From positions 1 to 26,718 of IMG/VR virus record IMGVR_UViG_3300005577_000075: DNA of 26,718 nt, one strand, 5' to 3'. Within the stretch, counting starts at the first letter, position 1, and each line of letters opens with the position of its first letter. Under the pieces are notes generated by a model, which ran no database searches, had not been told where the DNA came from, and saw only the letters and a list, made by a program, of their open reading frames with translations. The position numbers and the translations under genes were made by a program. This document shows positions 4,688 to 19,676 of this stretch, piece by piece. This stretch comes from a virus.

Positions 4688-5065
4688 ATGACGTTTCACT
4701 CGCATAAATTCGAAGACGCAGACCTTCAACGTCGCCTCATTTTGGGCCTAAAAGAGCTGACATCTGCTCCCGACTACACAGTGGAAGACGACGGCACAGT
4801 CTTCTTCGATAGAAGCGACTACGCCGGCATGAACAAGGTCATTCATCCCATCCGAAGAAGCTGCTTTCGTTGGTACCTTCGATGGTCGGAAGACCCCATC
4901 TGGTCAGCTGCCTTTTGGGAAGCCATGAAGCAATCTGGCACACCCTTTCAAATCGAGTATCACAACAGACGCATCGCCTTCCTTCTACCGAAGGATCTTG
5001 AAGAACTCCATGAAGAAATCTCCTATCGCACCGCGATAGAGTGCTATCCCATCGACGAGGACTAA
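4688..5065 (+). CDS. Unknown protein of the inserted (moron) cassette
   Basis: A 125-residue protein that I do not recognise. ATG 4688 follows an AAGGA sequence at a good distance. The product is acidic to neutral, has no membrane segment or signal peptide, and contains many aromatic residues (FRWYLRWSEDPIWSAAFWEAMKQ, FQIEYHNRRIAFLLP) and an acidic end (ECYPIDED), suggesting a compact globular cytoplasmic protein. Its codon use is more AT-rich than the flanking tail genes, a sign of separate acquisition. It starts 94 bases after S and shares its direction with the next gene, from which it is separated by 68 bases. Position between late genes and likely separate promoter suggest a lysogenic-conversion or superinfection-exclusion role, which is inference only. 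Confidence 0.75.
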   Translation: MTFHSHKFEDADLQRRLILGLKELTSAPDYTVEDDGTVFFDRSDYAGMNKVIHPIRRSCFRWYLRWSEDPIWSAAFWEAMKQSGTPFQIEYHNRRIAFLLPKDLEELHEEISYRTAIECYPIDED

Positions 5066-5133
5066 CTACGCGGCGAACGCAACATACCTAGTCACATCGG
5101 ATAGTCATTTGATGAATAGGAGGCCCGATCAAG

Positions 5134-5886
5134 ATGCCGATAGTAGCCTTCCATATGGGGAATCCGGTCAGGCAAAACCTGATTGCCGCACACCGGTTCT
5201 ACGTCGAACAAGCTCGAAAGCGGCTGCTTTCACAGTTTGAAAATCTTGACGACGAGGTCAATGAGACAGCGGAGATGCTACTCAACGAAATCGAGTATGA
5301 CCCGCAAATCGTTGATCCTTACGATGTCTACGAGGCTGTCCGAGAAAAGAGCATTGAGCTGTGCCAGATGCTCAGCGACTTGCAGGACCGCACACGACTT
5401 TCCGTCATTGCGGGCATGTATCACGAATGGGACAAAAAGCTTCGGGAATGGATGACACGCGAAATGAGACATTGGCATAACGCCGACCTCCTCAAGCGGG
5501 CCGTATGGGACGCAGACATGCCCGATCTTCTCGAACTCCTTACGTCATTCGACTGGGATGTCGCCGCGCTTGAGTGCCACGACCGTTTAGATGTAATGCG
5601 CCTGGTAGTGAATGTCTTTAAACATGGCAAAGGTACGTCGCTCGAACGGCTCAAGCTACAGCGCCCTGAGTTTTTCCCGTCCATAGGCGCTATCCAAGGT
5701 GGCTTGCCGTCTCATCTTATCGACCACACCCAAATGATGGTCAAAGACCGACATGTCGAAGAATTCTCCGAAGCCATCGTGGCTTTCTGGGAGGCGGTGC
5801 CAGAAAGCATCATCGCCAAAGATGAGGTCGAAGTTCCACGGCGGTTTGAAAAGGCCTTCAACAAGGACCGCTCCGCGACGTCCTGA
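5134..5886 (+). CDS. Unknown helical protein of the inserted cassette
   Basis: A 250-residue protein with a strong ribosome binding site (AGGAGG at 5118-5123, ten bases before ATG 5134). It appears all-helical and rich in charged residues (HRFYVEQARKRLLSQFENLDDEVNETAEMLLNEIEY). The most distinctive part is RLVVNVFKHGKGTS at residues 156-169, followed by LQRPEFF; an Asn/Lys-His-Gly motif of this sort recurs in uncharacterised helical proteins and recalls HEPN-type folds, but the spacing between R156 and H164 is not the usual HEPN spacing, so that is speculation. No membrane helix or signal peptide. It is convergent with the PIN-type gene downstream. Low GC relative to tail genes indicates acquisition together with its neighbour. 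Confidence 0.75.
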   Translation: MPIVAFHMGNPVRQNLIAAHRFYVEQARKRLLSQFENLDDEVNETAEMLLNEIEYDPQIVDPYDVYEAVREKSIELCQMLSDLQDRTRLSVIAGMYHEWDKKLREWMTREMRHWHNADLLKRAVWDADMPDLLELLTSFDWDVAALECHDRLDVMRLVVNVFKHGKGTSLERLKLQRPEFFPSIGAIQGGLPSHLIDHTQMMVKDRHVEEFSEAIVAFWEAVPESIIAKDEVEVPRRFEKAFNKDRSATS

Positions 5887-5983
5887 CAAAGGCTAATCTT
5901 CCCCTTCGCCGAACGGAAGCGCATCCGCGACCTCTTGCAGAGATACCCAGAACCACCTAGAGAAATAGCACGCAAGTCCCGCA

Positions 5984-6583
5984 TCACGAGCCGTAGCTCA
6001 CCTTCGTCCCATCCACTTGGATATGACCTGAGGCCTTCATGGTCTCCAGCACGTTGGCGACTTCCTCATCCGTCAGCCGCTTGGAAAAGATCGCCTGAAT
6101 GGTATTGGTAAGCGTCTTGATGGAGCGCGGCTTGGTCACCCGCTGATGAAGGCTCGCTAAAACTAAGCCCATCTTTTCTTCGGCCTTCCCTGTCTTAGCG
6201 ATCTGCGTTGCCTTGAGCATAGGTATCTCATCAATGCTCTTAGACCTACACGCGAGGACTTTCTGTCCTTTCAGATGCTTGATGAGGGGATCGAATCCCG
6301 AATCCTTGCTAATGATGTGAAAGAACGCATTCGCATCCTTCGCGACGATATGGCCAATGTAGTAGGCGATGTGGAAATCCAAGGCATTGGGACCGTTGCC
6401 GGCAATTTTGACGTAACGAGCGTGCTCACCGAGCGCCTGCATCGCCTCGGCCACTTCAAATGAAACCTTGGCTTGGCTTGCCCCCACAAACAGCAAGACC
6501 TTGAAGAGGGCATCGCCCTTCAAGGGACTCAAGGTTTTCGGCTGCACATTCTCATAGTCGATGAGGATGTAATTGGTCTTCAT
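5984..6583 (-). CDS. PIN/NYN-type nuclease domain protein
   Basis: A 199-residue protein transcribed against the late genes. The N-terminal 110 residues have the PIN/NYN pattern: D9 in YILIDYENVQP, D69 in GPNALDFHIAYYIG, and D94/D98 in FFHIISKDSGFDPLIKHL, a set of acidic residues expected to bind Mg2+ and cleave RNA. The C-terminal 70 residues are helical and basic (RSIKTLTNTIQAIFSKRLTDEEVANVLETMKASGHIQV) and look like a small winged-helix or nucleic-acid-binding module. The start has a strong site (GGGAGGGAG just upstream of the ATG at 6583). Such proteins are common as cargo in P2-like prophages; some PIN proteins are toxins or defence RNases, but no antitoxin is evident here. Function beyond likely ribonuclease is unknown. 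Confidence 0.82.
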   Translation of the reverse strand: MKTNYILIDYENVQPKTLSPLKGDALFKVLLFVGASQAKVSFEVAEAMQALGEHARYVKIAGNGPNALDFHIAYYIGHIVAKDANAFFHIISKDSGFDPLIKHLKGQKVLACRSKSIDEIPMLKATQIAKTGKAEEKMGLVLASLHQRVTKPRSIKTLTNTIQAIFSKRLTDEEVANVLETMKASGHIQVDGTKVSYGS

Positions 6584-6771: not shown

Positions 6772-6812
6772 CTGTTCTGACTGACGCACGACAGAACAGC
6801 CTGTGCGTGCGT
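6772..6812. promoter_or_regulatory. Dyad upstream of V: overlapping, mutually exclusive inverted repeats
   Basis: Two perfect 8-base arms, CTGTTCTG at 6772-6779 and CAGAACAG at 6792-6799, flank a 12-base spacer. A second structure overlaps it: ACGCACGACAG (6784-6794) pairs with CTGT (6801-6804) and CGTGCGT (6806-6812), giving 11 pairs with one bulged G and a 6-base loop. The two cannot form together in one RNA. The first dyad is centred 57 bases before the V start. P2 has a late promoter before V, and its activator Ogr binds a dyad with a 12-base spacer (TGT-N12-ACA) centred near -55, so an Ogr site is a reasonable reading, but the half-site here is not TGT/ACA at that spacing. No T-tract follows, so it is not a simple terminator. 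Confidence 0.5.
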
Positions 6813-6842
6813 GGCGTGAAGATCTTCCGCAGCATGCACTGC

Positions 6843-7430
6843 ATGCACGAAGACCCCACGCAACTCTTCAATCTGATCCGCTACGGGACCGTCGCCACGG
6901 TCGATGTGGCGGCGGCGCGCGTGGTGGTGTCGGTGGGTAGTCTCACCAGTAAGCCTATTCCCTGGCTTGCGCCGCGTGCCGGCGCCGCCCGCACCTGGTC
7001 GCCGCCCTCCCCCGGCGAACAGGTGCTCGTGCTATCGCCCGGCGGCAACCTCGGCGCCGCCGTTGCCCTGACGGGCATCTTCTATGACGCACATCCGATC
7101 CCTGCCGACGGTACTGCCGACAACGTGCTGCTCGCCTTCGGCGACGGCGCGGTACTTCTTTACGACCATGCGACGCATCTGCTCAAAGCTACGCTTCCTG
7201 CCGACGGCCGCGTCGAACTCACCGCGCCCGGCGGCTTCCGCCTGGTCGGCGACGTCGGCATCGATGGCGCCCTCCATGTCACGCAAGCGGCCACGTTCGA
7301 TCAAACGCTACATGCGTCGCAGGACATCACCAGCGACGCGGACGTGAAAGCGGGTGACATCAGCCTGCGTCAGCACCTGCACGACCAGGTGCAGCCGGGC
7401 CCGGGGCTCACCGGCAGGCCACAGCCATGA
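6843..7430 (+). CDS. V: Baseplate assembly/spike protein, GpV family
   Basis: A 195-residue protein of the P2 GpV family, the trimeric tail spike that punctures the cell envelope. It has the OB-fold N-terminal part (residues 1-80: LFNLIRYGTVATVDVAAARVVVSVGSLTS, WSPPSPGEQVLVLSPGGNLGAAVALTGIF) and a C-terminal beta-helix part (ATLPADGRVELTAPGGFRLVGDVGIDGALHVTQAATF, DVKAGDISLRQHLHDQVQPGPGLTG). The conserved HLHDQV-type ending carries the histidines that bind iron in the spike tip of P2-like phages. The frame stays open upstream to 6744, but family comparison puts the start at MHEDPTQLF; there is no clear ribosome binding site before 6843. The stop overlaps the W start (ATGA). Confidence 0.92.
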   Translation: MHEDPTQLFNLIRYGTVATVDVAAARVVVSVGSLTSKPIPWLAPRAGAARTWSPPSPGEQVLVLSPGGNLGAAVALTGIFYDAHPIPADGTADNVLLAFGDGAVLLYDHATHLLKATLPADGRVELTAPGGFRLVGDVGIDGALHVTQAATFDQTLHASQDITSDADVKAGDISLRQHLHDQVQPGPGLTGRPQP

Positions 7431-7780
7431 CCGGAATGTCGCGCACCACCGGCGCCGCGCTGCCGGAGATCGACCACATCGCGCAATCCGTCGCCGACAT
7501 CCTGACCACGCCGCTGGGCAGCCGCCTAGCGCGCCGCACCTACGGCAGTCGCGTCTTCGACCTCCTCGATGCGCCGGCCAACGCCGCCACTCGCGTGCGT
7601 CTGTTCGCCGCCACCGCGACCGCCCTCATGCGCTGGGAGAAGCGCCTCACCGTGCAGCGCGTCGCGCTGACAGCCATCGACGGCCTGCAGGGGAAGTTCG
7701 CCCTCGACATCGACGGCCGCCTCGCCACGGGCGCCGCCGTGTCGCTGAGCATGCCTTTGACCCGAGGCGCTACGGCATGA
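7427..7780 (+). CDS. W: Baseplate wedge protein, GpW family (gp25-like)
   Basis: A 117-residue protein of the GpW/gp25-like lysozyme-fold family, part of the baseplate wedge that starts sheath assembly. The segment HIAQSVADILTTPLGSRLARRTYGSRVFDLLDAP (residues 17-50) is the family signature, including the conserved ILTTPLGSR and YGS elements. The remainder alternates short strands (VQRVALTAIDGLQGKFALDIDGRL) ending in a hydrophobic tail. ATGA overlaps link it to V upstream and to J downstream, showing coupled translation. P2 W is nearly the same length. Confidence 0.95.
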   Translation: MTGMSRTTGAALPEIDHIAQSVADILTTPLGSRLARRTYGSRVFDLLDAPANAATRVRLFAATATALMRWEKRLTVQRVALTAIDGLQGKFALDIDGRLATGAAVSLSMPLTRGATA

Positions 7781-8793
7781 CCAGCGCCATCCAGCTCGAC
7801 CGCCTGCCACCGCCCGATGTGGTCGAACCGCTCCACTACGAAACGATCCTAGCGAAAGCCAAAGAGCAGTTTGCGGCGTTGTGGCAGCAACAGCAGAGGC
7901 GCGACGCCTCCCTGCCGGGCATCGACCTGAGCCGCGAGTCCGAGCCGGTCGTGAAGATCCTGCAGACCGTCGCCTACGTGGCGCTGGGCCTGCGTCAGCG
8001 CGTCAACGATGCCGCGCGGGCCAACTTCCTGGCGACCGCCCAGGGTGCAGACCTCGACCACATCGGCGCTTGGTACGGCGTCGAACGCCTCACGCTGAGC
8101 CCCGCCAAGCCGGAGCTGGCCATCTCCGCCGTGATGGAATCCGACGATGCCTTGCGCGAGCGCATCACCTTGGCGCCGGCCTCGTTCTCGGTGGCCGGGC
8201 CGGAAGCGGCCTACGTCTTCCATGCACGCAGCGCCTCAGGCGACGTGCTCGATGCCAGCGCGATCAGCCCACAGCCGGACGACATCCGCGCGGTGGTGGC
8301 CGATGTCCTGGCCCGTCACGACGCAGCGCCGGCCCTGGTCGCCGACATGCAGGCCGCCTTGGCCGCGGCACGCTGGCCCGGCGAGGTGATCGTGTCGGTG
8401 TTGTCGCGTCAGGGCAATGGCCAGGCCGACGCCGCTCTGCTCGCTGCCGTGGCCGACAACGTGAGCGCCGACAACGTGCGGCCCCTGACCGACTTCGTCA
8501 CCGTGCAGTCGGCCGACATCGTGCCTTTCCAGGTGCGCGCCACCCTGTGGACCTACGCCGGCCCGGATGCCGATATCGTCCGCGCCGCGTCCCGCGCGAG
8601 CCTCGATACCTATCTCGCCGAGGCCAAGCGCCTGGACCGCGACATCACGTTGTCCGGGCTCTACGCCGCCCTGCAGGTCGCCGGCATCCAGAACGTGGAG
8701 CTGGAAGAACCGCGCGCCACGCTGGTGATCGGCCCGACCCAGGCTGCGCATTGCATCGGCGTGGAGCTGGCCTATGGGGGTATCGGTGGATAG
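7777..8793 (+). CDS. J: Baseplate protein J, GpJ family
   Basis: A 338-residue baseplate wedge protein of the GpJ family, the counterpart of T4 gp6. The start at ATG 7777 overlaps the W stop. The typical N-terminal region is LDRLPPPDVVEPLHYETILAKAKEQF, then SEPVVKILQTVAYVALGLRQRVNDAARANFLATAQGADLDHIGAWYGVER, and the central VAGPEAAYVFHARSASGDVLDASAISPQPDDIRAVV. The C-terminal part includes RPLTDFVTVQSADIVPFQVRATLWTY, also characteristic. It is somewhat longer than P2 J (302 residues), largely through extra length in the middle. The gene overlaps I by 20 bases. Confidence 0.95.
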   Translation: MTSAIQLDRLPPPDVVEPLHYETILAKAKEQFAALWQQQQRRDASLPGIDLSRESEPVVKILQTVAYVALGLRQRVNDAARANFLATAQGADLDHIGAWYGVERLTLSPAKPELAISAVMESDDALRERITLAPASFSVAGPEAAYVFHARSASGDVLDASAISPQPDDIRAVVADVLARHDAAPALVADMQAALAAARWPGEVIVSVLSRQGNGQADAALLAAVADNVSADNVRPLTDFVTVQSADIVPFQVRATLWTYAGPDADIVRAASRASLDTYLAEAKRLDRDITLSGLYAALQVAGIQNVELEEPRATLVIGPTQAAHCIGVELAYGGIGG

Positions 8794-9331
8794 CCTCCTG
8801 CCGCCCAACAGCACGCCGCTCGAACGCACCCTCGAACACGTCACGCTCAACGCCCTGGACGTGCCGGTGCCGCTGCGCTCCCTCTGGAATGCCGACACCA
8901 TCAGCGGCGAGTTGCTGCCATGGCTGGCCTGGTCGATGAGCCTCGATAGCTGGAAAAGCTATTGGTCCGACACGGTCAAGCGCAACCGCGTGCGCCAGGC
9001 CATCGACATCGCGCGCCGCAAAGGCACGTCGCAGTCGGTACGCGATGTGGCCGCCGCCTTCGGTGGCGCCATCAGCATCCGGGAGTGGTGGCAGACCGAG
9101 CCCAAGGGCGTGCCGCACACCTTCGACGTGGTGCTGACCCTGACCGGCGACGACGGCGCCGAAGCGAGCGCCGCCTACGTCGACGACGTCATCGCCGAGA
9201 TTCGCCGCACCAAGCCGGCCCGGTCGCACTTCACCTTCACCCAGGGCTTGCAGGCTCGCGGTCGCCTCGGCGTGGTCGCCGCGGCCCGGCCTGTCGCCTA
9301 CGTGCATCTGCAATTCACCGGAGCTGCCTGA
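8774..9331 (+). CDS. I: Tail protein I, GpI family
   Basis: A 185-residue P2 GpI-type baseplate protein that connects the wedge with the tail fibre. The signature is SLLPPNSTPLERTLEHVTLNALDVPVPLRSLWNADTISGELLPWLAWSMSLDSWKSYWSDTVKRNRVRQAIDIARRKGTSQSVRDV, with the conserved LPWLAW and W-x-S-x-W elements. ATG 8774 overlaps J by 20 bases; the GTG at 8786 is an alternative start that would still retain all conserved residues. The fibre gene follows after one base, as in P2. Confidence 0.94.
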   Translation: MGVSVDSLLPPNSTPLERTLEHVTLNALDVPVPLRSLWNADTISGELLPWLAWSMSLDSWKSYWSDTVKRNRVRQAIDIARRKGTSQSVRDVAAAFGGAISIREWWQTEPKGVPHTFDVVLTLTGDDGAEASAAYVDDVIAEIRRTKPARSHFTFTQGLQARGRLGVVAAARPVAYVHLQFTGAA

Positions 9332-9332
9332 G

Positions 9333-11144
9333 ATGGCCCTCACCCTGACGATCACGCCGGCCGGCCGCGCGGCCCTGGTCAACGCCCAAGCCGATGGCAC
9401 CCAGGCCGTGCGCATTGCCCGCGTGGGAGTGACTGCCACCGCCTTCGCACCCGGCCAGCCGCTGCCGAACGAGATCAAGCGCCTGGCGACCGTGGCCAGC
9501 GGCGCCACCGCGAAAGACACGGTCCACGTCACCGTGACGGATGCGGGCACGGACGTGTACACGGTGCGCGGGTTCGGTTGGTACCTGGACGACGGCACGC
9601 TGTTCGGCTCCTACGGCCAGGCCAACGTGATCGTGGAGAAGTCCGCGCAGTCCACGATGCTGCTGGCCACCGACGTGCAGTTCACGGACGCGGACGCCAC
9701 GCAGATCACCTTCGGCGACACCACGTTCAACAATCCGGCGGCCACCCTCGACACGCTGGGCGTGGTGAAGCTGGCCAGCGAGGACGACGCGACCACCGGC
9801 ACCGATACGCAGCGCGCCGTCACGCCGAAGTCGCTGCTCGCCGTGCTAAATGCCCGCCTGGGCGTCGGCGCACCCACCGCATTCGTCAGGAAGCTGCTGG
9901 GACTGGCCACGGCCGCCGCCTTCCGCGGGGAGTTGGGCCTCAAGAGCGCCGCCCTGAAAGACGACGGCCCCGGCAACGGTTTGGATGCCGACACGCTCGA
10001 CGGCCAGCACGGCGATTACTACCGCGCCTGGGCCAACCTCACGGACAAGCCCACCACGTTCACGCCAAGCGCGCACGCGCATCCGTGGTCGGACATCACC
10101 AACCCGCCCGCGCAGGCGAGCCGCTGGCCGGCCTGGTCGGAGGTGACGGCCAAGCCCGACACCTTTACCCCGGCGCCGCACTCGCACGCCTGGGCGGACA
10201 TCAACAACCCACCCATGCAGACCCAGCGCTGGCCGGCATGGAGCGAGATCACCGCCAAGCCCACCACCTTTGCGCCGTCGGCGCACACGCACGCCATCGG
10301 TGACGTGACGAACCTGCAGACCGCGCTCGACGCCAAGGCGCCGACACAGAGCCCGGTGTTCCAGGGTGCCGTGGTGGCCGCCGGGGGCGCGGTGCAGATC
10401 GGCGCGACCGGCGGCGCGTACGCCACCTTGAAGAATGACGGCACCCTCGCCTTGAACGGCGGCACCGCCTATGCCCTGCTGCGCGCCGGCGCGAGCAACA
10501 CCTCCGTCGGCACGCGACTGACCAACGGCCTGATGCCCTCCATCGAAGGCATCGCCGGAACGGGCCTGGAAGGCTCGCCGCCTCTGCTCGTCGGCAACGG
10601 CGGCAATGCCTCTGCCTCGGCATTGATGGCCTTCCTGCGCGACGGCATCGCCGGTGGCTTCCTCGGCCTGGACACCGACAACGTGCTCAAGTGGGGCGGC
10701 TGGACGATGGGCCCCGCACGGCGGGTGCTGCATGACCGTATCCGCGACGCTGTGCTCGATGGCACCACGTGGATGGAAGACCTGCGCGTCGTGGGCAATC
10801 CCGTGTGGCATAGCGGGCAAATCTCGTTCGCTGCCGAGGGCAACGGCTGGATGAAGTTCCCCAACGGCTTCCTGGTGCAGTGGGGGAGGTATCTCTCCGA
10901 CGCGCCGTGGAACGAAGGCACCGGCCCCGCGCTCAGCTTCCCCATCGCGTTTCCCAATGGCTGCCTCTCCGTGCAGGTCAGCGACTACCTGACCAACGTC
11001 GGCGGCGCGGGCTGGTCGCAGTACGACGACAGCGCCCAGCTCACCGGTTGGGACCGCACGCACTTCACCACCTTCATCCAGTTCCCCGGCGGCGCCAACG
11101 CCAACCGTTGGTGTGGGCTGACTTACTTCGCCCTGGGGTACTGA
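9333..11144 (+). CDS. H: Tail fibre protein, GpH family
   Basis: A 603-residue receptor-binding fibre. The N-terminal 150 residues are the P2-type baseplate attachment (tail-collar fibre) domain: LTLTITPAGRAALVNAQADGTQAVRIARVGVTA, YTVRGFGWYLDDGTLFGSYGQ and ATQITFGDTTFNNPAATLDTLGVVKLAS. Residues 233-327 contain tandem W/H-x-H repeats of shaft type. The C-terminal 100 residues (FPNGFLVQWGRYLSD..., SFPIAFPNGCLSVQVSD, HFTTFIQFPGGANANRWCGLTYFALGY) form a gp53-like C-terminal tip domain, with the usual final aromatic strand. The middle and tip should set host range. It is followed immediately by a fibre assembly gene. Codon use remains that of the phage. Confidence 0.92.
   Translation: MALTLTITPAGRAALVNAQADGTQAVRIARVGVTATAFAPGQPLPNEIKRLATVASGATAKDTVHVTVTDAGTDVYTVRGFGWYLDDGTLFGSYGQANVIVEKSAQSTMLLATDVQFTDADATQITFGDTTFNNPAATLDTLGVVKLASEDDATTGTDTQRAVTPKSLLAVLNARLGVGAPTAFVRKLLGLATAAAFRGELGLKSAALKDDGPGNGLDADTLDGQHGDYYRAWANLTDKPTTFTPSAHAHPWSDITNPPAQASRWPAWSEVTAKPDTFTPAPHSHAWADINNPPMQTQRWPAWSEITAKPTTFAPSAHTHAIGDVTNLQTALDAKAPTQSPVFQGAVVAAGGAVQIGATGGAYATLKNDGTLALNGGTAYALLRAGASNTSVGTRLTNGLMPSIEGIAGTGLEGSPPLLVGNGGNASASALMAFLRDGIAGGFLGLDTDNVLKWGGWTMGPARRVLHDRIRDAVLDGTTWMEDLRVVGNPVWHSGQISFAAEGNGWMKFPNGFLVQWGRYLSDAPWNEGTGPALSFPIAFPNGCLSVQVSDYLTNVGGAGWSQYDDSAQLTGWDRTHFTTFIQFPGGANANRWCGLTYFALGY
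10029..10313 (+). repeat. Tandem shaft repeats inside the tail fibre gene
   Basis: Three units of about 30-40 residues repeat in the fibre: each has a Trp, a short T/AxKPxTFxPxxHxH element, and a WxDIxNPP element. The units begin at WANLTDKPTTF, WSEVTAKPDTF and WSEITAKPTTF, and end at the HAH/HSH/HTH triads. The repeats are visible in the DNA as near copies of ctggccggcctgg-type segments near 10122 and 10230. Histidine pairs of this kind in trimeric fibres can bind metal ions along the axis. Copy number is a likely point of variation between relatives through slippage or recombination. Confidence 0.7.
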
Positions 11145-11687
11145 ATGGCCTACTTCTACGACATCGTGCAGGGCGGCTTCTACTGCGATGCGGTGCATGG
11201 CCCGCGCACCCTCCCGGTCCGCGATCCCGACTGGACACCGGGCGATGGCCAAACGCTCGCCGATGGTCCGTTGATCGAGCAGGCCAATCCGCACTGCACC
11301 CTGCCGCCGGCCAGTGACCTGGCCGTCTTAAGTGAGGACACCTACCGCGCGTTGCTGGACGGCCAGAGCCGCGGCAAACGGATCGTCGTCCGTGATGGCG
11401 CGCCCACGCTGGCGGATCCGCCGCCGCCCACGACCGAGCAGATCGCCGCACGCCTGCGCGCGCAGCGCGATGTCCTGCTTGCCCCGGTCACCGACGCCCT
11501 GCAGCGCCATGTGCTGCAAACCACCTATGCCCAGCCGACCACGCTGACCGACACCGAAGCGTCGGCGCTGGCGACCTATGCCCAGGCGCTGCGCGATGTG
11601 CCGCAGCAGCCGGGCTTCCCGCACACCGTGGTCTGGCCGGACGCCCCGGCACCGACCGACGCCATCCCCGCCACCCCCGAGGCCTAA
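11145..11687 (+). CDS. G: Tail fibre assembly protein, GpG-type chaperone
   Basis: A 180-residue protein directly after the fibre gene, in the P2 G position. The N-terminal half, MAYFYDIVQGGFYCDAVHG... and DPDWTPGDGQTLADGPLIEQANPHCTLP, is variable in such proteins, whereas the C-terminal half has the conserved pattern RLRAQRDVLLAPVTDALQRHVLQTTYAQPTTLTDTEASALATYAQALRDVPQQPGFPHTVVWPDAP, which is the tail fibre assembly (caudovirales TFA) signature ending in WP. It acts as a chaperone for folding or trimerisation of the fibre and usually co-evolves with the fibre C-terminus. Starts on the A after the fibre TGA. Confidence 0.88.
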   Translation: MAYFYDIVQGGFYCDAVHGPRTLPVRDPDWTPGDGQTLADGPLIEQANPHCTLPPASDLAVLSEDTYRALLDGQSRGKRIVVRDGAPTLADPPPPTTEQIAARLRAQRDVLLAPVTDALQRHVLQTTYAQPTTLTDTEASALATYAQALRDVPQQPGFPHTVVWPDAPAPTDAIPATPEA

Positions 11688-11690
11688 CCC

Positions 11691-12872
11691 ATGTCCACCG
11701 CCTACCACCACGGCGCGCGCATCCAGGAAACCAGCGACGCCCCGTACGCGCTCAAGACCGTCTCCACCGCCACCATCGGCTTTGTCGCCACCGCGTCGGA
11801 TGCCGATGCGACCGCCTTCCCTCTGGACACGCCGGTCCTGCTCACGCAACCCAAGGCCGGCCTCGCCAAGGCCGGCACCAAGGGCACCCTCGCCCGCGCG
11901 CTCAAAGCCATTGCCGACATCGTGACCTGCCCGGTGGTAGTCGTGCGTGTCGCCGAAGGCGTGGATCCGGCGGCCACCACCTCCAACGCGGTGGGCACCG
12001 TCAACGCGGAAGGGCGCTATACCGGCCTGCAGGCGCTCCTTACGGCGGAAGCGCACACCGGCGTGCGTCCGCGCATCCTGGGCGCGCCCGGTCTGGACAC
12101 CAAGCCCGTGGCCGACGCACTGGTCACGGTCGCCAAGCGCTTGAAGGCCTTTGCTTACGCCACCTGTGACGACTGCGCCACCCTCGCCGATGCCAAGACC
12201 TACCGCGAAGGGTTCGGCGCGCGCGAGCTGATGCTGCTGTGGCCGGATTTCACCACCTGGGACACCGTCGCCAACCGCGAAGCCAAGGCGCTGACGGTCG
12301 CCATGGCACTGGGCCTGCGTGCCAAAACCGACCAGGTCGCCGGCTGGCACCGCGTGCTCTCCAATATCCCCGTCGACGGCGTGATGGGCATCAGCGCCGA
12401 CGTCTACTTCGACTACCTCACCGAGGGTACCGACGCGGACCTGCTCAACGAAGCGGGCATCACCACCCTGGTCAAGCGCAACGGTTTCCGCTTCTGGGGC
12501 TCGCGCACCTGCGACACCAGCACATACGTCTTCGAGTCCTACACGCGCACCGCCCAGGTCGTGGCCGACACCATCGGCGAAGGCGTGTTCGAGTACAGCG
12601 ACAAGGCCATGCACGCGAGCCTCGTCCGTGACCTGATCGATGCGATCAACGCCAAGCTGCGCGCCCTCACCCGCCAGGGCGCCCTGCTCGGCGGCCGCTG
12701 CTGGTTCGACCCGTCGTTGAACGAGACCGCCGACATGCAGGCCGGCAAGCTCGCGCTCAACTACGACTACACGCCGGTGCCGCCGTTGGAAGACCTCACG
12801 CTGCGCCAGACCTTCACCGACGTCTACATCGCCGATCTCAAAGCGGCGATCACCTCCACCAACAACGCCTGA
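11691..12872 (+). CDS. FI: Tail sheath protein, GpFI family
   Basis: A 393-residue contractile sheath subunit, length close to P2 FI (396). The N-terminus YHHGARIQETSDAPYALKTVSTATIGFVATASDADATAFPLDTPVLL is the typical sheath opening. Other conserved parts are ILGAPGLDTKPVADALVTVAKRLKAFAYATCDD, ELMLLWPDFTTWD, GISADVYFDYLTEGTDADLLNEAGITTLV, GFRFWGSRTCDT and LRALTRQGALLGGRCWFDPSLNETADMQAGKL. A GAGG sequence lies just before the ATG. P2 has a late promoter before FI; here only three bases separate G and FI, so any such promoter would lie inside G, and I saw no clear dyad there. Confidence 0.97.
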   Translation: MSTAYHHGARIQETSDAPYALKTVSTATIGFVATASDADATAFPLDTPVLLTQPKAGLAKAGTKGTLARALKAIADIVTCPVVVVRVAEGVDPAATTSNAVGTVNAEGRYTGLQALLTAEAHTGVRPRILGAPGLDTKPVADALVTVAKRLKAFAYATCDDCATLADAKTYREGFGARELMLLWPDFTTWDTVANREAKALTVAMALGLRAKTDQVAGWHRVLSNIPVDGVMGISADVYFDYLTEGTDADLLNEAGITTLVKRNGFRFWGSRTCDTSTYVFESYTRTAQVVADTIGEGVFEYSDKAMHASLVRDLIDAINAKLRALTRQGALLGGRCWFDPSLNETADMQAGKLALNYDYTPVPPLEDLTLRQTFTDVYIADLKAAITSTNNA

Positions 12873-12892
12873 TCGCTGCAAGGAACGGAATC

Positions 12893-13405
12893 ATGAAGCT
12901 CCCGAGCAAACTGAAAAACTTCGACCTCTTCCAGAACGGCGAATCCTGGCTGGGCCTGGTGCCGAGCGTCACGCTGCCCAAGCTGACCCGCAAGATGGAG
13001 GACTACCTCGCCGGTGGTATGGCCGGCCCCGTCGAGATCGACCTCGGGCAGGAAAAGATCGAGCTGGCCTTTACCGCAGGCGGCATCCTGCGCAGCGCCC
13101 TCGAACAGTACGGCGCCACCGCGGTGGATGCCGTGCAGCTTCGCTTCGCCGGGGCGTACCAGTCCGACAGCAGCAGCGGCTACAACGCCGTCGAAGTGGC
13201 GGTACGCGGCCGCTACAAGGAGTTCGATCCGGGCGACGCCAAATCGCAGGCCGACACCGAGCACAAGTTTTCCGTGTCGTGCGCCTACTACCGCCTCAGC
13301 ATCGACGGCGTGCCGGTGATCGAGATCGACATGTTGGCCAACAAGCTCGTCGTCAACGGCGTGGATCGCATGGCCGCGCAGCGCGCCGCGATGGGCCACT
13401 GGTAA
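12893..13405 (+). CDS. FII: Tail tube protein, GpFII family
   Basis: A 170-residue inner tube subunit, about the same length as in P2. Family features: MKLPSKLKNFDLFQNGESWLGLVPSVTLPKLTRKMEDYLAGGMAGPVEIDLGQEKIELAFTAGGI at the N-terminus, VAVRGRYKEFDPGDAKSQADTEHKFSVSCAYYRLSIDGVPVIEIDMLANKLVVNGVDRM at the C-terminus. AAGGAA before the ATG is a good ribosome binding site. The tube is the rigid core around which the sheath contracts; strong expression would be expected for both. Confidence 0.97.
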   Translation: MKLPSKLKNFDLFQNGESWLGLVPSVTLPKLTRKMEDYLAGGMAGPVEIDLGQEKIELAFTAGGILRSALEQYGATAVDAVQLRFAGAYQSDSSSGYNAVEVAVRGRYKEFDPGDAKSQADTEHKFSVSCAYYRLSIDGVPVIEIDMLANKLVVNGVDRMAAQRAAMGHW

Positions 13406-13435
13406 CCCTTCCCCACTCTTCCCAGGAATCTCCTC

Positions 13436-13729
13436 ATGAACGACACCACCATGCCCGTCATTACGCTGGACGAGCCGATCCGCCGCGGCGAGCAGATCCT
13501 CACCGAAGTGCGCCTGCGCAAGCCCAAGGCTGGCGAGCTGCGCGGTACGCAGCTGGTGAACCTGCTGCACATGGACATCGCGGCGCTCGAAATCGTCCTG
13601 CCGCGCATCACCGTGCCGACCCTCACCAAGCACGAGGTCAGCCAGCTCGATCCGGCGGACATCACGCAGTTCGGGTCGGAGCTGGCCTCTTTTTTGTTGA
13701 CGAAGGCCAAGCGGGAGGGCTTCCCGTAA
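13436..13729 (+). CDS. E: Tail protein E (tape-measure chaperone), GpE family
   Basis: A 97-residue protein of the P2 GpE family, starting 30 bases after the tube gene with AGGA before ATG. The body (ITLDEPIRRGEQILTEVRLRKPKAGELRGTQLVNLLHMDIAALEIVLPRITVPTLTKHEVSQLDPADITQFGSELASFLL) is the conserved tail assembly chaperone sequence. Together with its frameshift extension E' it binds the tape measure protein and helps the tube polymerise around it, like lambda gpG/gpGT. The -1 frameshift site is 34 bases before the stop, so most ribosomes should end here and make the short form. Confidence 0.94.
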   Translation: MNDTTMPVITLDEPIRRGEQILTEVRLRKPKAGELRGTQLVNLLHMDIAALEIVLPRITVPTLTKHEVSQLDPADITQFGSELASFLLTKAKREGFP

Positions 13730-13860
13730 CGGTCGAAGACGCCATGGCCGACATCGCGGTGGTCTTCCATTGGCCACCGCCGACGATGGACGGCATGGAC
13801 GTGAGCGAGTTGGTGCAGTGGCGCGAACGCGCCCGGTTGCGGAACGGCGGCGAGGACTAG
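13436..13860 (+). CDS. E': E' extension of E made by -1 frameshift (E+E')
   Basis: Reading E up to the TTG codon at 13694-13696, then slipping back one base and continuing from 13696, gives a 141-residue product (P2 E+E' is about 142). The extension reads VDEGQAGGLPVTVEDAMADIAVVFHWPPPTMDGMDVSELVQWRERARLRNGGED and ends at TAG 13860. The FHWPPPTMDGMDVSELVQWRERA segment is the typical C-terminal E' sequence. The reading frame has no good start of its own near the slip site, which supports frameshift expression. It ends one base before the tape measure start, as expected. This entry covers both frames joined, not a simple open frame. Confidence 0.9.
13690..13696 (+). other. Programmed -1 ribosomal frameshift site (T TTT TTG)
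   Basis: Six T followed by G at 13690-13696, phased X XXY YYZ in the E frame (codons TCT TTT TTG), the same heptamer as in P2 E/E'. Slippage allows TTT and TTG tRNAs to re-pair in the -1 frame. GC-rich sequence downstream could form a stimulatory structure, though no single strong hairpin was obvious. In a GC-rich genome a run of six T inside a conserved gene is notable by itself. Confidence 0.9.
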
Positions 13861-13861
13861 C

Positions 13862-16684
13862 GTGGATCTGAAACTCAGTGTCCTGTTGAACATGATCGAC
13901 AAGGTGACCGCGCCCTTGCGCGGCATCGCCGGCAGTTCCGCCGCCACGTCCAAGGCGCTGCGCGAGACCCGCCAGCGCCTCAAGGAACTGCAGAGGGCGC
14001 AGGACGATTTGAAGGGTTTCCGCCAGCTCAAGGCAGGCACTCAGGCCCTGGGCACCCAGCTAGCGGCGGCACGCCAACGCGCCACCGAGCTGGGGCGCGC
14101 CCTTGCCGGCACCACGAACCCGACTCGGCAGCAGACCCGGGAGTTCGCGGCGGCGAAGCGCCAGGCCGACGCGCTGGGCGGGCAGTACCAGGCCAATGTC
14201 CGCCGGCTGCAATCCGTGCGCGAAGCCCTGGGTGCCGCCGGCATCCATACGCGCGACCTGGCCGGCCATGAGCGACGGCTGCGCGACGACATCGCCGCGG
14301 CGAACGCGCAGCTGGGCGAGCAGCAGAAAAAGCTCAGCGCGCTCACCCAGCAGCAACAGAAGATGGCCGCGGCCCGCCAAAGCTTCGAGCGCAGTTCGGC
14401 GACGGCGGCGCATCTCACCGTGGGCGGCTACGCCACGCGGGAGACCGGCAAGCATCTGCTGGACGCGATCAGCCCTACGGTGACCGAGGCGAAGGCCTGG
14501 ACGGCGCAGGTCGCGCAGTTGCGCGCCATGGGCGTCGGCGATGCCCTGGTGACCGATGCGGTGAAGTTTGCCCGGGCGCAGGACATCATGGGCACGAGCG
14601 CGACCGAGACGTTGAAGCTCCTGAAAGAGTCCTACAGCGTCCTGCGCGACATGCATGAGGCGGAGGCAGTGACGCCCTACCTCGCGCGCATGAAGTTCGG
14701 CATCGAGACCGTGATGGCCCAGGGCGGGCATGGCGAGGGGCACGGCGACACCGCCGAGACCATGTTCATGGACCTGCTCAAGGTGGCCGAGCTGCGCGGC
14801 GCCGCCAAGAGCCCGGAAAGCCTGAAGCGCGTGCTGGATTTCGCCACCCAGGCGTACGTCGCCTCCGGCGGCCTGGTGAAGTCCGAAGACCTGCTCAACA
14901 TGATCAAGACCGGCGGCGTCGCGGCGAAGCAGCTGGACGATCAGTCGTTCTTCTTCGGCCTGCTGCATACCGTGCAGGAAATGGGCGGCCACCGCGCCGG
15001 TACGGGCCTGTCGACGGCCTACCAGAACTGGGCGGCCGGGCGCTCCACCCGCCAGTCGGCCGACGAACTGTTCCAGCTGGGCCTGCTCAAGCCCGGCGCT
15101 ATCGAAGTCCATGAGAAGACGGGCCACCTCAAGAAGCTGCTGCCCGATGCACTGAAAGAGGGCGACCTCTATCGGAGCAACCCGTTCGAGTACCTGATGA
15201 CGCGGGTGATCCCGAAGCTCAACCCGGACGGCCAGCTCAACGACCAGCAGGTGGTGAGCAAGATCAACGCGCTGTTCTCCGGCCGCAAGGGCGGTGACCT
15301 GTTCGCGTCGCTGTTCATGGAGCGCGCGAACATCGCCAAGCACTTGGCCGCGGCCCCCAAGGCCTTCGGCGTAGATGCGCTCTACGACGAAGCCCGCCAG
15401 AACGCCGCGGGCCAGGAGGCCGAGCTGCTGGCCCGCAAGTCGGACCTGTACCGCGAGCTGGGCGAGCAACTGCTGCCCGTCTACGTAGCGGGCTTGGGCA
15501 AGTTGGTGGGCGTCCTGCGTGCCGTCAGCGGCTGGTCCCAACGTCACCCGGCGCTGGCCAAGGGCATGCTGCTGGTCGCCGGCAGTGCTGGCGTGCTGCT
15601 GGCGACGGTGGGCAGCCTGATGATCGGCCTGGGCGGGCTGCTCGGCCAGTTCGCGCTGCTGCGCTACGTCATGCGCCTCGGGGGCATTCGCGTCGGCGCG
15701 ATGGCCGGCGGCGCCGAGGGCGGCCTGCTGTCGCGCCTGCCGATGCTGGGTCGCCTGTTCCCAGCCATCGCTACCGGCGCCCGTGCCGCCATGCTCGCCA
15801 TCACCGGTGTGAGCCTGCCGGTGGCCGCGCTGATCGCGCTGGTGATCGTCGCGGCCCTGGCGATACGTCGCTACTGGCAACCGCTCTCGGCCTGGTTCTC
15901 GGGTGTTTGGGATGGCATCGGCCAGGCCGTAGGGCCGGTGTTCGCTGACATCGGCCGCGCGCTCGCGCCGCTCAAGCCGGCGTTCGACGTGATCGTCGGA
16001 TGCCTGGTTAGCGTGTGGCGCTGGATCACGCAACTGCTGGAGCCCATGCAGGCCACCCAGGAGCAGATGGCCAATGCCCGCGCGACCGGCGTGACGTTCG
16101 GGCAACTGGTCGGCGCCGCCATCCGCGGCGTGGTGCAGGCCGTCAGCTTCGGCGTGCAGATGTTCGTGGCGCTCGGCGAGGCCATCGGCACCGCGGCGGG
16201 CTGGGTGGTGGTGCATTGGGAACCGGTGAAGGCTTGGTTCGCCGAGATGTGGCAGAGCGTGGAGAACGCCGCGCGCAAGACGCTCGACTGGATCGCCGAA
16301 AAACTTGGCGCGGTACGCGAGCTGATCGACCGCATTCGCCACCTGGGGCAGAGCAGCCCGGTGATGCCACCGGGCACCACGCCCATCGACTGGATCACGG
16401 GCGATGACCAGGAGAAGGCTCGCAAGATTGCCGACGCCATCGCCCGTACGCCCCTGGCCGGCGGCGAGGCGACCGGCCAGGGAGCCAGCCTGGTCAACTC
16501 CGTCCCACCGGTGGGCGTGCGCGCAGCGAAGACCGTGGTCATGCACGGCGACCAGGTCACGATGCATGTGGACGCCCGCGGCAACGATCCGGACGCGGTG
16601 CGCCGGCAGGTCGCGGACGCCATGGCCCGCCACGAGCGAAGCAGGCAGGTGCGCGCACGCTCCGCCTTTAGCGATGAGGATTGA
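13862..16684 (+). CDS. T: Tail tape measure protein, GpT family
   Basis: A 940-residue protein that sets tail length and is ejected into the cell. The start is GTG 13862, directly after the E' stop. Residues 1-180 form long coiled coils (LKELQRAQDDLKGFRQLKAGTQALGTQLAAARQRATELG, QEQQKKL-like QQKKLSALTQQQQKM). The middle includes the conserved MGVGDALVTDAVKFARAQDIMGTSATETLKLLKESYSVLRDMHEA and YQNWAAGRSTRQSADELFQLGLL. Hydrophobic segments lie at about residues 570-605 (KGMLLVAGSAGVLLATVGSLMIGLGGLLGQFALL) and 640-665 (MLAITGVSLPVAALIALVIVAALAI), followed by tryptophan repeats (AWFSGVWDGIGQAVGP, WVVVHWEPVKAWFAEMW). Longer than P2 T (815), suggesting a longer tail. Confidence 0.95.
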   Translation: MDLKLSVLLNMIDKVTAPLRGIAGSSAATSKALRETRQRLKELQRAQDDLKGFRQLKAGTQALGTQLAAARQRATELGRALAGTTNPTRQQTREFAAAKRQADALGGQYQANVRRLQSVREALGAAGIHTRDLAGHERRLRDDIAAANAQLGEQQKKLSALTQQQQKMAAARQSFERSSATAAHLTVGGYATRETGKHLLDAISPTVTEAKAWTAQVAQLRAMGVGDALVTDAVKFARAQDIMGTSATETLKLLKESYSVLRDMHEAEAVTPYLARMKFGIETVMAQGGHGEGHGDTAETMFMDLLKVAELRGAAKSPESLKRVLDFATQAYVASGGLVKSEDLLNMIKTGGVAAKQLDDQSFFFGLLHTVQEMGGHRAGTGLSTAYQNWAAGRSTRQSADELFQLGLLKPGAIEVHEKTGHLKKLLPDALKEGDLYRSNPFEYLMTRVIPKLNPDGQLNDQQVVSKINALFSGRKGGDLFASLFMERANIAKHLAAAPKAFGVDALYDEARQNAAGQEAELLARKSDLYRELGEQLLPVYVAGLGKLVGVLRAVSGWSQRHPALAKGMLLVAGSAGVLLATVGSLMIGLGGLLGQFALLRYVMRLGGIRVGAMAGGAEGGLLSRLPMLGRLFPAIATGARAAMLAITGVSLPVAALIALVIVAALAIRRYWQPLSAWFSGVWDGIGQAVGPVFADIGRALAPLKPAFDVIVGCLVSVWRWITQLLEPMQATQEQMANARATGVTFGQLVGAAIRGVVQAVSFGVQMFVALGEAIGTAAGWVVVHWEPVKAWFAEMWQSVENAARKTLDWIAEKLGAVRELIDRIRHLGQSSPVMPPGTTPIDWITGDDQEKARKIADAIARTPLAGGEATGQGASLVNSVPPVGVRAAKTVVMHGDQVTMHVDARGNDPDAVRRQVADAMARHERSRQVRARSAFSDED

Positions 16685-16686
16685 GG

Positions 16687-17154
16687 ATGGATGGGATGGT
16701 CTTGATGGCCTTCGGGCCGTTCGTGTTCGGCATGCGCACCGCGGCCTACGAAGAGCTGCAACGCCAGATGCAGTTCAAGCATGCCGCCAATGCGCGGCTG
16801 GGCAAGCGCGACGCCTACCAGATCGTGAGTCCCGGCACGGAGATGCTCACGCTGTCGGGCGTGGTGGCACCGGAGGTTTCGGGCACGCTCGCCTCCATCA
16901 CGCAGTTGGAAACGATGGGCAGCGAGGGACGTGCCTACGTCCTAGTCGATGGCGCCGGCCACATCTACGGTGTCTACTTCATTGACAGCCTGCAAACCAC
17001 GCAGAGCGCGATCCACAGCGATGGCACACCACGCAAAGTGGCCTTCTCGCTCACGCTGTGCCGCAGCGATGACGAGCCTACCGACGAGGCCAGCGACAAC
17101 CTTGCCGGCGGCCCCTCGCCGGAGGCGCAGGAACGCGCCCGAGCCACCGCATGA
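16687..17154 (+). CDS. U: Tail protein U, GpU family
   Basis: A 155-residue protein of the P2 GpU family, needed for tail completion near the baseplate. Conserved parts: MAFGPFVFGMRTAAYEELQRQMQFKHAANARLGKRDAYQIVSPGTEMLTLSGVVAPEVSGT, then LETMGSEGRAYVLVDGAGHIYGVYFIDSLQTTQS and PRKVAFSLTLCRSDDE. The start is uncertain: TTG 16681, ATG 16687 and ATG 16696 are all in frame; GAGG at 16683-16686 is too close to 16687 but at a proper distance for 16696 (MVLMAFGPFVFG). All conserved residues remain in each case. The stop overlaps the D start by four bases (ATGA). Confidence 0.92.
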   Translation: MDGMVLMAFGPFVFGMRTAAYEELQRQMQFKHAANARLGKRDAYQIVSPGTEMLTLSGVVAPEVSGTLASITQLETMGSEGRAYVLVDGAGHIYGVYFIDSLQTTQSAIHSDGTPRKVAFSLTLCRSDDEPTDEASDNLAGGPSPEAQERARATA

Positions 17155-18215
17155 TCGTCCAGCCCACCAACCCACTGTTGCGCCCTACCTGTCAGATCGC
17201 CATTGATGGCAAGGACCGCACTGCGCGGATCATGCCGCACCTGATCCAACTGACCGTGGAGTCGCACCGCCAGGATCACGCGGATACGGTGAGCTTGAAT
17301 CTGGACGATAGCCGGGGGCAGATCGCCCTGCCGCGCCGCGGCGTGGAGATGCGGGTGATGCTGGGCTTTGAAGGACTCGGCGTGTCGCTGCAGGGCACCT
17401 ATCACGTGGATGAGATCGAACATAGCGGCACGCCCGACACGGTGAGCATCGTGGCGCGCAGCGCCAAGCTGACGCGGGAGCTGCGCATGCGCAAAGAACG
17501 GAGCTGGAGCCAGACCACCGTGGGGCATGTGGTGCGCGTCATTGCCGGCGAACACCAGCTCACGCCGCGCGTGGCGGCGAGCCTGAATCGGCTGCCGGTG
17601 GAGCACCTGGCGCAGACGGAATCCGATGTTGCGCTGCTGCGGCGCCTGGGCAAGATGTGGGATGCGGTGGCGACAGTGAAGGCCGGCAATCTGCTTTTCA
17701 CGCCTGTCGGTGCCGCGCAGACGGCCAGCGGGAAACCGCTCGAACCATTGGTCTTGCGGCGGGCCGATGGTGACCGGCATCGCTTCCACGAAGCCGACCG
17801 GGACGCTTACACCGGGATCCGTGCACGCTGGCACGACGTGGGCGCCGGGCGCGGTCGCACGGTGCTGGCTGGCACCGCTGGACATGTGAAGTTTTTACGC
17901 GGCGATTTCGCCAGCCGGGAAGACGCACGACGTGCCGCTGAGGCGGAACTCGCGCGCGTGCGGCGTGGCGCTTCGACGTTCACCTTAGACATAGCCATCG
18001 GTCGGCCGGACCTCTATCCGGAAATGCCCGCGCGCACGCGTGGCTGGAAACCAGAGATCGACACCGTCGATTGGATCGTCGTCAAGGCGACACACAGTTT
18101 TACACCGGGCGGTGGCTATACCACGGCTGTGGAACTGGAAAGCAAAGCGACCGCCAGCGATACCGCGGCGGCCGATGAAGATGCGCCAGCGCCGAGTGAA
18201 AGCGACTTGGCTTGA
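17151..18215 (+). CDS. D: Late tail gene D (baseplate hub), GpD family
   Basis: A 354-residue protein of the P2 GpD family (387 in P2), the baseplate hub that links the tube and the spike, related to T4 gp27/VgrG N-terminal domains. Typical: MIVQPTNPLLRPTCQIAIDGKDRTARIMPHLIQLTVESHRQDHADTVSLNLDDSRGQIALPRRGVEMRVMLGFEG, GTYHVDEIEHSGTPDTVSIVARSAKL, RSWSQTTVGHVVRVIAGEH, LAQTESDVALLRRLGKMWDAVATVKAGNLLF. The last 25 residues are acidic and serine rich. It is the final gene of the tail operon; no clear terminator with a T-tract was seen after it. In P2 it is followed by ogr and the attachment site, which is not the case here. Confidence 0.95.
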   Translation: MIVQPTNPLLRPTCQIAIDGKDRTARIMPHLIQLTVESHRQDHADTVSLNLDDSRGQIALPRRGVEMRVMLGFEGLGVSLQGTYHVDEIEHSGTPDTVSIVARSAKLTRELRMRKERSWSQTTVGHVVRVIAGEHQLTPRVAASLNRLPVEHLAQTESDVALLRRLGKMWDAVATVKAGNLLFTPVGAAQTASGKPLEPLVLRRADGDRHRFHEADRDAYTGIRARWHDVGAGRGRTVLAGTAGHVKFLRGDFASREDARRAAEAELARVRRGASTFTLDIAIGRPDLYPEMPARTRGWKPEIDTVDWIVVKATHSFTPGGGYTTAVELESKATASDTAAADEDAPAPSESDLA

Positions 18216-18994: not shown

Positions 18995-19018
18995 TGAGTG
19001 CAAACCTCTCGAAATAAG

Positions 19019-19058
19019 TTGCGAAACTTCGATTCGTGGGCTATCGTTCGATTTGTGT
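19019..19058 (+). promoter_or_regulatory. Candidate early promoter with direct-repeat repressor operators
   Basis: TTGCGA at 19019-19024, 17 bases, then TATCGT at 19042-19047 match sigma-70 -35 and -10 at four positions each and point into the early operon. Overlapping them are two direct copies of TTCGATTYGTGK at 19028-19039 and 19047-19058, 19 bases apart start to start (about two helical turns). P2 C repressor also binds two direct repeats about two turns apart, over the early promoter, so this is a plausible operator. A weaker TTCG-containing third copy may be at 19064. A promoter for the repressor itself on the other strand was not clear. Confidence 0.5.
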
Positions 19059-19085
19059 ATCACTTCGGCATCGTAACCCATCGCC

Positions 19086-19340: not shown

Positions 19341-19676
19341 ATGCACTCAAATCGATGCACGATCCGCTGCCCCCACTGCCGCGAACGCGCGGTCACGATG
19401 ACCTCGCGCGAACTGAGCAACCTGGTGCGGGAAATCTATTTCCAGTGCATGGGCATCGAATGCGGCCACCGCTTCGTCGCTCATCTAGGCATCGTCCGTA
19501 CGCTGGTGCCCAGCATGAATCCACGCGATGACGTGGCCCTTCCCATCGTGGAGCGACGGGCCAACGACATCATCGTGGGCAGAACGCCGAGCGATGCCAC
19601 ACCCGCGCGCGACTGCACATCGCCCGTACCGCCGACGCCGGCCACGCATCCACCCGCGCCGCCCGCACTCAACTAA
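19341..19676 (+). CDS. ogr: Late gene activator, Ogr/Delta-like zinc finger
   Basis: A 111-residue protein whose first 60 residues match the Ogr/Delta zinc-finger family: CPHC (residues 10-13) and CMGIEC (residues 37-42, C-x4-C) around TMTSRELSNLVREIYFQCMGIECGHRFVAHLGIVRTLVPS. Ogr of P2 and B of 186 bind upstream of late promoters and contact RNA polymerase alpha to turn on head, lysis and tail genes. The C-terminal 45 residues are Pro/Ala rich and not part of the family. Here the gene lies in the early operon between the RHH-like gene and unknown small genes, whereas in P2 it lies just after D; in 186-like phages B is also placed on the early side. Strong GAGGA site upstream. Confidence 0.88.
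   Translation: MHSNRCTIRCPHCRERAVTMTSRELSNLVREIYFQCMGIECGHRFVAHLGIVRTLVPSMNPRDDVALPIVERRANDIIVGRTPSDATPARDCTSPVPPTPATHPPAPPALN

What the first reader, a model, noticed from the sequence alone, without database searches (positions are those of the whole stretch)
6772..6812. Perfect 8-12-8 dyad overlapping a second 11-bp hairpin, upstream of V
The first dyad has arms CTGTTCTG/CAGAACAG with a 12-base spacer, matching the spacing of the Ogr binding site and its expected location before the P2 late promoter PV, but with a different half-site. The second structure shares bases with it, so both cannot form in RNA; this is also what an attenuator or RNA switch looks like. The start codon of V lies only 31 bases after, without a clear ribosome binding site.
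Basis: partly seen in the sequence, partly recalled or inferred. Interest (0 to 1): 0.55.

Follow-up and report, generated by a model that had tools for sequence, protein, structure and literature searches.

The report
Activator site for a phage late promoter
The short mirror-image DNA motif in front of gene V is very probably the docking site for this phage's own late-gene activator (a small zinc-finger protein), in a spelling that differs from the textbook phage P2 version, and the gene it switches on seems to start right at the first base of its messenger RNA.

Summary
The dyad is real. By itself it is near chance (3 perfect 8-12-8 dyads in the window, 0.9 expected), but it is conserved. 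The conserved core, GTTCT-N14-AGAAC (6774-6797), lies exactly 45 nt before the V start codon in 10 of 10 viral contigs found by V protein and 7 of 7 found by Ogr protein, although DNA further upstream is unrelated. The same site stands between divergent genes P and O in 9 of 9 related contigs that hold O, including one 99.9% identical to the window: the place of P2's shared pO/pP activator site. At V, O and P a -10-like hexamer starts 33 nt after the site. This fits an Ogr-activated P2-type late promoter, PV. The predicted transcription start falls on the V AUG (as annotated in P2), so V mRNA should be leaderless; P too, while O has a leader with GAGG. The attenuator idea fails: the second hairpin is not conserved and lies upstream of the predicted transcript. 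New: the half-site is TTCT spaced 14, not TTGT/TGT spaced 11-13, and occurs only with an Ogr clade whose otherwise invariant zinc-finger Arg is Met/Leu/Ile. That is one evolutionary event, so causality is a hypothesis. No experiment was possible.

The parts
6774..6797 (+). conserved operator core GTTCT-N14-AGAAC of late promoter PV (inferred Ogr binding site)
   Evidence: same place before V in 10 of 10 contigs found by V protein and 7 of 7 V-bearing contigs found by hydrophobic-type Ogr; second copy at P/O in 9 of 9
6807..6812 (+). weak -35-like hexamer GTGCGT, 17 bp before the -10-like hexamer; AGCTGCG is the clade consensus at this place
   Evidence: consensus; assignment is inference
6830..6835 (+). 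-10-like hexamer CAGCAT of PV, 33-38 nt after the operator
   Evidence: all 16 TTCT-class rows have CAGCAT in this register (G054 and G061 were chosen by a pattern that contains it); PO GATGCT and PP TACGCT have the same register
6843..6843 (+). predicted transcription start, coinciding with the A of the V start codon (leaderless mRNA)
   Evidence: geometry; P2 record annotates the V-operon start at the first base of V
6834..6836 (+). in-frame ATG nine bases before the V start, conserved in the clade; it overlaps the -10-like element, so it is probably not the start
6843..7430 (+). gene V, baseplate assembly protein (Phage_base_V); first gene of the operon
6843..18215 (+). inferred single late operon V to D; the G-like gene ends at 11687 and tail sheath FI starts at 11691, so there is no room for a separate PF
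   Evidence: no other exact operator in the window
19341..19676 (+). ogr: Ogr/Delta zinc-finger activator, CX2CX22CX4C; Met20 stands where most relatives have Arg
   Evidence: Pfam Ogr_Delta 6.1e-19

Best explanation
The dyad is the upstream activator site of late promoter PV in a P2-like phage. The phage's Ogr protein (19341-19676) binds GTTCT-N14-AGAAC, centred 57.5 bp before the first base of V, and recruits RNA polymerase to a degenerate promoter (-35-like GTGCGT, 17 bp, -10-like CAGCAT). Transcription starts on or within a base or two of the V AUG, so the mRNA has no leader and V is translated without a Shine-Dalgarno sequence; the message runs on through W, J, I, H, G and FI to D. A second such site at the P/O junction serves P and O. 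Shown by computation: position, conservation, recurrence, fixed hexamer register, presence of ogr, absence of a ribosome-binding site. Inferred: that Ogr is the binder, the start of transcription, leaderless translation, the polymerase contact (known for P2, from recall).
For: Operator core at the same distance from V in 10 of 10 contigs (7 distinct upstream sequences) and in 7 of 7 V-bearing contigs with this Ogr type (6 distinct), with mean information of 0.1 bit per column at -160..-75 over 24 distinct contexts (the contexts were mostly chosen by the pattern, so only the flank figure is unbiased). Second exact site upstream of O in 9 of 9 contigs with O, including G001, 16,478 of 16,495 bases identical to the window. 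Same -10 register at PV, PO and PP: CAGCAT, GATGCT, TACGCT. P2 has activator sites and starts at the same places, centre to start 55-58 bp. Ogr_Delta gene present. A scan by site plus -10 pattern returned 40 viral contigs, 34 with a V homologue immediately downstream.
Against: No footprint, 5' RACE or expression data exist. The half-site differs from the published P2 consensus TGT-N12-ACA (PMC3931495). Six of 40 pattern hits are not V. The CI-like repressor of the window (18566-19087) was not tested as a binder. The contigs are related, so the counts are not independent events.
Confidence: 0.87

Rival explanations
1. RNA attenuator or switch: two mutually exclusive hairpins in the V leader control transcription or translation.
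For: A 7-bp perfect second stem overlaps the dyad; there is no ribosome-binding site.
Against: Of 24 distinct contexts only L231, the window's own phage, has this stem; L239 has a different 7-bp stem and the other 22 have at most 6 bp. The dyad arms vary outside GTTCT/AGAAC and the spacer is free. Both structures lie upstream of the predicted start, so they would not be in the mRNA. The same dyad serves two divergent genes at P/O.
Confidence: 0.03
2. Operator of another regulator (the CI-type repressor at 18566-19087 or a host factor) that acts on late genes.
For: Palindromic operators are common; the half-site is not the textbook Ogr one; a CI-type gene is present.
Against: Exact sites are only in front of late operons: two per contig in the five contigs that hold both V and O, exactly where P2 has Ogr sites. 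The register to -10 is that of an activator near -57, not of a repressor. The site class follows the Ogr clade.
Confidence: 0.08
3. The dyad is inside V: the ORF is open from GTG 6744, so the symmetry is a by-product of coding.
For: The frame is open to 6744.
Against: In relatives the same frame has stop codons between the dyad and the V ATG (L161, L172, L174). Upstream DNA is unrelated between contigs while the dyad stays.
Confidence: 0.01
4. Terminator of the upstream genes or chance palindrome.
For: Perfect 8-bp dyads are common in the window (22 found, mean 16 expected).
Against: No T run follows; conserved at fixed distance in unrelated flanks and repeated at P/O.
Confidence: 0.01

Closest known systems
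P2 late promoter PV and its Ogr site (NC_001895 10239-10266; Christie and Calendar 1985, seen only as a citation)
   Same: Before V, after a variable gene; site centre 55.5 bp before the start; start on the V AUG; CAATCT seven bases before V.
   Different: Half-site TTGT-N11-ACAA at PV instead of TTCT-N14-AGAA; P2 also has a separate PF, absent here; P2 P has a leader with a Shine-Dalgarno sequence.
Burkholderia-, Pseudomonas- and Ralstonia-type Ogr sites (AP3, FLC5, Dobby; phiRSY1 TGTTGT-N13-ACAACA, PMC5694545, passages seen)
   Same: Zinc-finger Ogr; dyad centre 56-57 bp before V; -10-like CAACAT or similar hexamer 6-7 bases before V in FLC5.
   Different: Core TGT-N13-ACA; Arg where the window's Ogr has Met.
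Shewanella phage M16-3
   Same: Related dyad pair before V and O, at -68 and -108 from the starts.
   Different: GCGGTA-like half-site, a third spelling; not tested further.

Membership tests
P2-type Ogr-activated late promoter | Ogr/Delta CX2CX22CX4C activator gene in the same phage | tested here: met
   19341-19676, Pfam PF04606 6.1e-19; cysteine spacing matched by pattern
P2-type Ogr-activated late promoter | dyad centred about 55 bp before the transcription start | tested here: inconclusive
   57.5 bp to the V ATG; the start itself is not mapped
P2-type Ogr-activated late promoter | the site recurs before the other late operons | tested here: met
   P/O junction in 9 of 9 contigs with O; FI has no own promoter region here
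P2-type Ogr-activated late promoter | consensus TGT-N12-ACA as published for P2 | tested here: not met
   TTCT-N14-AGAA instead; the 17 of 22 Arg-class rows with N13 do not meet N12 either. So it is a variant of the kind, not a member of the TGT subclass. A TGT-N15-ACA overlaps the site in 7 of 16 TTCT rows, the window among them, and is not conserved in the other 9
P2-type Ogr-activated late promoter | weak or no -35, -10-like element present | tested here: met
P2-type Ogr-activated late promoter | Ogr binds the site and activates through RNA polymerase alpha | not testable with these tools
   needs footprint and transcription assays
Leaderless mRNA | 5' end at or next to the AUG | not testable with these tools
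   predicted from geometry; P2 PV annotated so
Leaderless mRNA | no Shine-Dalgarno sequence | tested here: met
   0 of 16 TTCT-class and 2 of 22 Arg-class V starts hold one of five SD-like 4-mers at -20..-4; O in the same phages has GAGG in 8 of 8 examined
Attenuator / RNA switch | alternative hairpins conserved in a transcribed leader | tested here: not met
   second stem not conserved

The most novel reading that the evidence does not exclude
One branch of the Ogr family has switched its DNA word: the half-site changed from TTGT to TTCT with spacing 14, together with Arg20 to Met/Leu/Ile (plus Thr19, Arg44, Gly50) in the zinc ribbon. The result is a late regulon that ordinary P2-type Ogr or Delta proteins should not read, run from only two operators, two of whose three promoters (PV and PP) make leaderless messages.
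Probability: 0.4. Interest if true: 0.6.

Novelty: new variant of a known kind. Interest (0 to 1): 0.45.

Why it matters
It turns an isolated palindrome into a defined regulon with a testable protein-DNA pair. The Ogr family has no solved structure that a profile search finds (best E 0.049, unrelated zinc proteins), so a natural specificity switch with four candidate residues is a direct way to its recognition code. The geometry also predicts that leaderless translation of V, known from P2, is a widespread trait of the family, and that P shares it in this clade. If satellites of P4 kind parasitise these phages, their Delta proteins should carry the same switch.

Tried and rejected
Attenuator, terminator, coding by-product and chance were tested and rejected. 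The first chance test favoured nothing: the bare dyad is ordinary, and the loose pattern GTTCTG-N12-CAGAAC with 3 mismatches gives 9 hits against 8.4 expected, so no weak sites were counted. Search for a bacterial host failed: two scans of genome contigs gave no relative of V. A crude shared-dyad search in nine known phages gave no convincing site for 186-V, Smp131, KL3 and Acica; a narrower scan then found TGT-N13-ACA for KL3 and Acica (KL3 and AP3 with V starts that I chose myself). 186 and Smp131 were left out of the count (186 has no PV annotated; Smp131 is rearranged and its V start is uncertain). In the Arg class 4 of 22 rows (G036, G039, G040, Shewanella) have no TGT dyad at that place, and only 2 of 13 Arg-class O regions showed the strict TTGT-N13-ACAA. 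Correlation of residue 20 with the site rests on one clade (one change, support 99/95), so a tree-aware test has n = 1. The Ogr model (mean pLDDT 67.9) gave no PDB match with E <= 0.001. The O part for the TTCT class was void through a letter-case error and was redone. Literature: searches listed no paper on this half-site or on leaderless V outside P2; the library is open-access only, so this is weak.

Full report
What is there. The window is a virus record of 26,718 bases from a P2-like phage: N at the left end, S at 4129, a PIN7 protein on the minus strand at 5984-6583, V at 6843, then W, J, I, H, a tail assembly chaperone (G-like) at 11145-11687, tail sheath FI at 11691 and the rest of the tail genes to D at 18215, a CI-type repressor at 18566-19087 and Ogr at 19341-19676 (other gene letters by analogy with P2). 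The dyad CTGTTCTG-N12-CAGAACAG is at 6772-6799 as stated. Taken alone it is ordinary.

Conservation. V protein finds 8, then 10 viral contigs. In all 10 the core GTTCT-N14-AGAAC stands 45 nt before the V ATG. Seven upstream sequences are distinct; the other contigs repeat those of the window, L003, L007 and L033. One of the seven (L036) has A at the sixth position of the left arm, which shows that the core is GTTCT and not GTTCTG. The DNA before the site is unrelated between contigs: over 24 distinct contexts the mean information is 0.1 bit per column at -160 to -75.

Second site. A search of whole records found an exact second site in contigs G001, G004 and G007 and in L033. It lies between a leftward terminase P and a rightward scaffold O, where P2 has its shared pO/pP activator site. 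Over all TTCT-type contigs that hold O, it is 9 of 9 (G001, G004, G007, G009, G014, G015, G020, G021, G025). G001 is 16,478 of 16,495 bases identical to the window in the overlap, so the site can be taken as the window phage's own.

Promoter geometry. Counting from the last base of AGAAC, bases 33-38 read CAGCAT at V, GATGCT at O (9 of 9) and TACGCT on the P side (9 of 9). All have A at the second and T at the sixth place, the best-kept bases of a sigma-70 -10 element (recall). In P2 the distance from site centre to start is 55.5 (PV), 55 (PO), 56 (PP) and 58 (PF) (starts as annotated). Here the V ATG lies 57.5 bp from the centre. The P ATG begins after 44 or 45 nt, as V does (9 of 9), without an SD-like 4-mer (8 of 8 examined). 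The O ATG comes after 78-81 nt with GAGG before it (8 of 8 examined, L205 being a duplicate of L204). So V and P are predicted leaderless and O is not. In P2 the V-operon start is annotated on the first base of V, and PMC4633059 (passages seen) names P2 phage among the few known sources of leaderless genes in E. coli, with Christie and Calendar 1985 in the citation range; I did not see that paper.

Generality. A scan of viral contigs for GTTCT-N14-AGAAC-N31-GCAGCATG gave 40 contigs; 34 have a V homologue right behind it (one, L239, is a short fragment at a contig end), 6 do not (five copies of one unrelated stretch, and L242).

Who binds. Ogr proteins were gathered with the window's clade (25 loci) and with a Burkholderia-type alignment (best 80 of 297 kept). 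The residue two before the conserved Ser is Met, Leu or Ile in 22 of 25 of the first set and Arg in the other 3; it is Arg in 80 of 80 of the second set and in P2, 186, FLC5, AP3, KL3, Acica, Shewanella M16-3, Smp131 and Dobby. Of 30 contigs searched, 22 hold V. All 7 of these with hydrophobic-type Ogr have the exact TTCT site before V (G020 and G021 are the same sequence there), and the 5 of them with O have the second. In the table, 13 of 13 rows with known hydrophobic-type Ogr have TTCT-N14-AGAA centred at -57.5 (G054 and G061 were chosen by the site, and their Ogr then read ITSR; Ogr was detected in only 2 of the 24 pattern contigs searched for it), and 0 of 22 Arg rows do; 18 of 22 Arg rows have TGT-N11/13-ACA centred at about -56 to -57 (17 with N13, P2 with N11). 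The hydrophobic state is one clade, so this is one historical event. Four zinc-ribbon columns separate the groups without overlap: window residues Thr19, Met20, Arg44 and Gly50 (14 against 25 distinct cores). Which of them matters is not known. The AlphaFold model puts 19-20 in strand 16-24 and 44 in strand 44-49, with mean pLDDT 67.9 over the whole chain and 81-92 in residues 11-50.

Mechanism. I take the dyad to be the Ogr site of PV: Ogr bound at about -57 recruits polymerase to a weak promoter, and the message starts on the V AUG and runs from V to D, since the G-like gene and FI are 3 bases apart and no other exact operator is in the window. Inferred steps are the binding, the start, and translation without a leader. 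The attenuator, other-operator, coding and chance readings are weighed under the rivals.

Novelty. The kind (Ogr-dependent late promoter, leaderless V) is known. The TTCT-N14-AGAA half-site, its tie to an Ogr clade, the reduction of the late regulon to two operators, and the leaderless geometry at P were not found in the papers searched (PMC3931495, PMC5694545, PMC3091744, PMC10612066 and PMC8628076 read as passages), which cover open-access text only.

Noticed in passing
window 25888-26610, minus strand: ThsB-like TIR protein of Thoeris defence (PADLOC ThsB1 1.3e-124, Pfam TIR_2) near the right end of the record; no ThsA partner was recognised among the neighbours tested.
   Followed up: partly
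window 4688-6583: The gap between S and V holds two ORFs without Pfam match and a minus-strand PIN7-domain protein; in relatives the DNA before the V promoter is unrelated, so it looks like a cargo slot.
   Followed up: partly
P/O junction: L203-L212: The P start codon sits 44-45 nt after the operator with TACGCT in the -10 register and no SD: terminase P is predicted leaderless as well. FLC5, AP3, Acica and Shewanella M16-3 look similar before P; P2 and 186 have a GCGAGG before P.
   Followed up: partly
L219, L229, L234, L237, L245: Five viral contigs share GTTCTGGGTT(T/C)AGGTGTGCAGAAC plus GCAGCATG at the exact spacing, but without V behind it. Probably chance in one repeated stretch; not explained.
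   Followed up: no
Shewanella phage M16-3 (L044), upstream of V and O: A third kind of half-site (GCGGTA-like) stands where the Ogr site is expected; its Ogr has RRTR instead of RTSR.
   Followed up: no
window 23690-24358, minus strand: 4-fold beta flower protein (Pfam Bflower 2.7e-07) in the right-hand cargo region.
   Followed up: no
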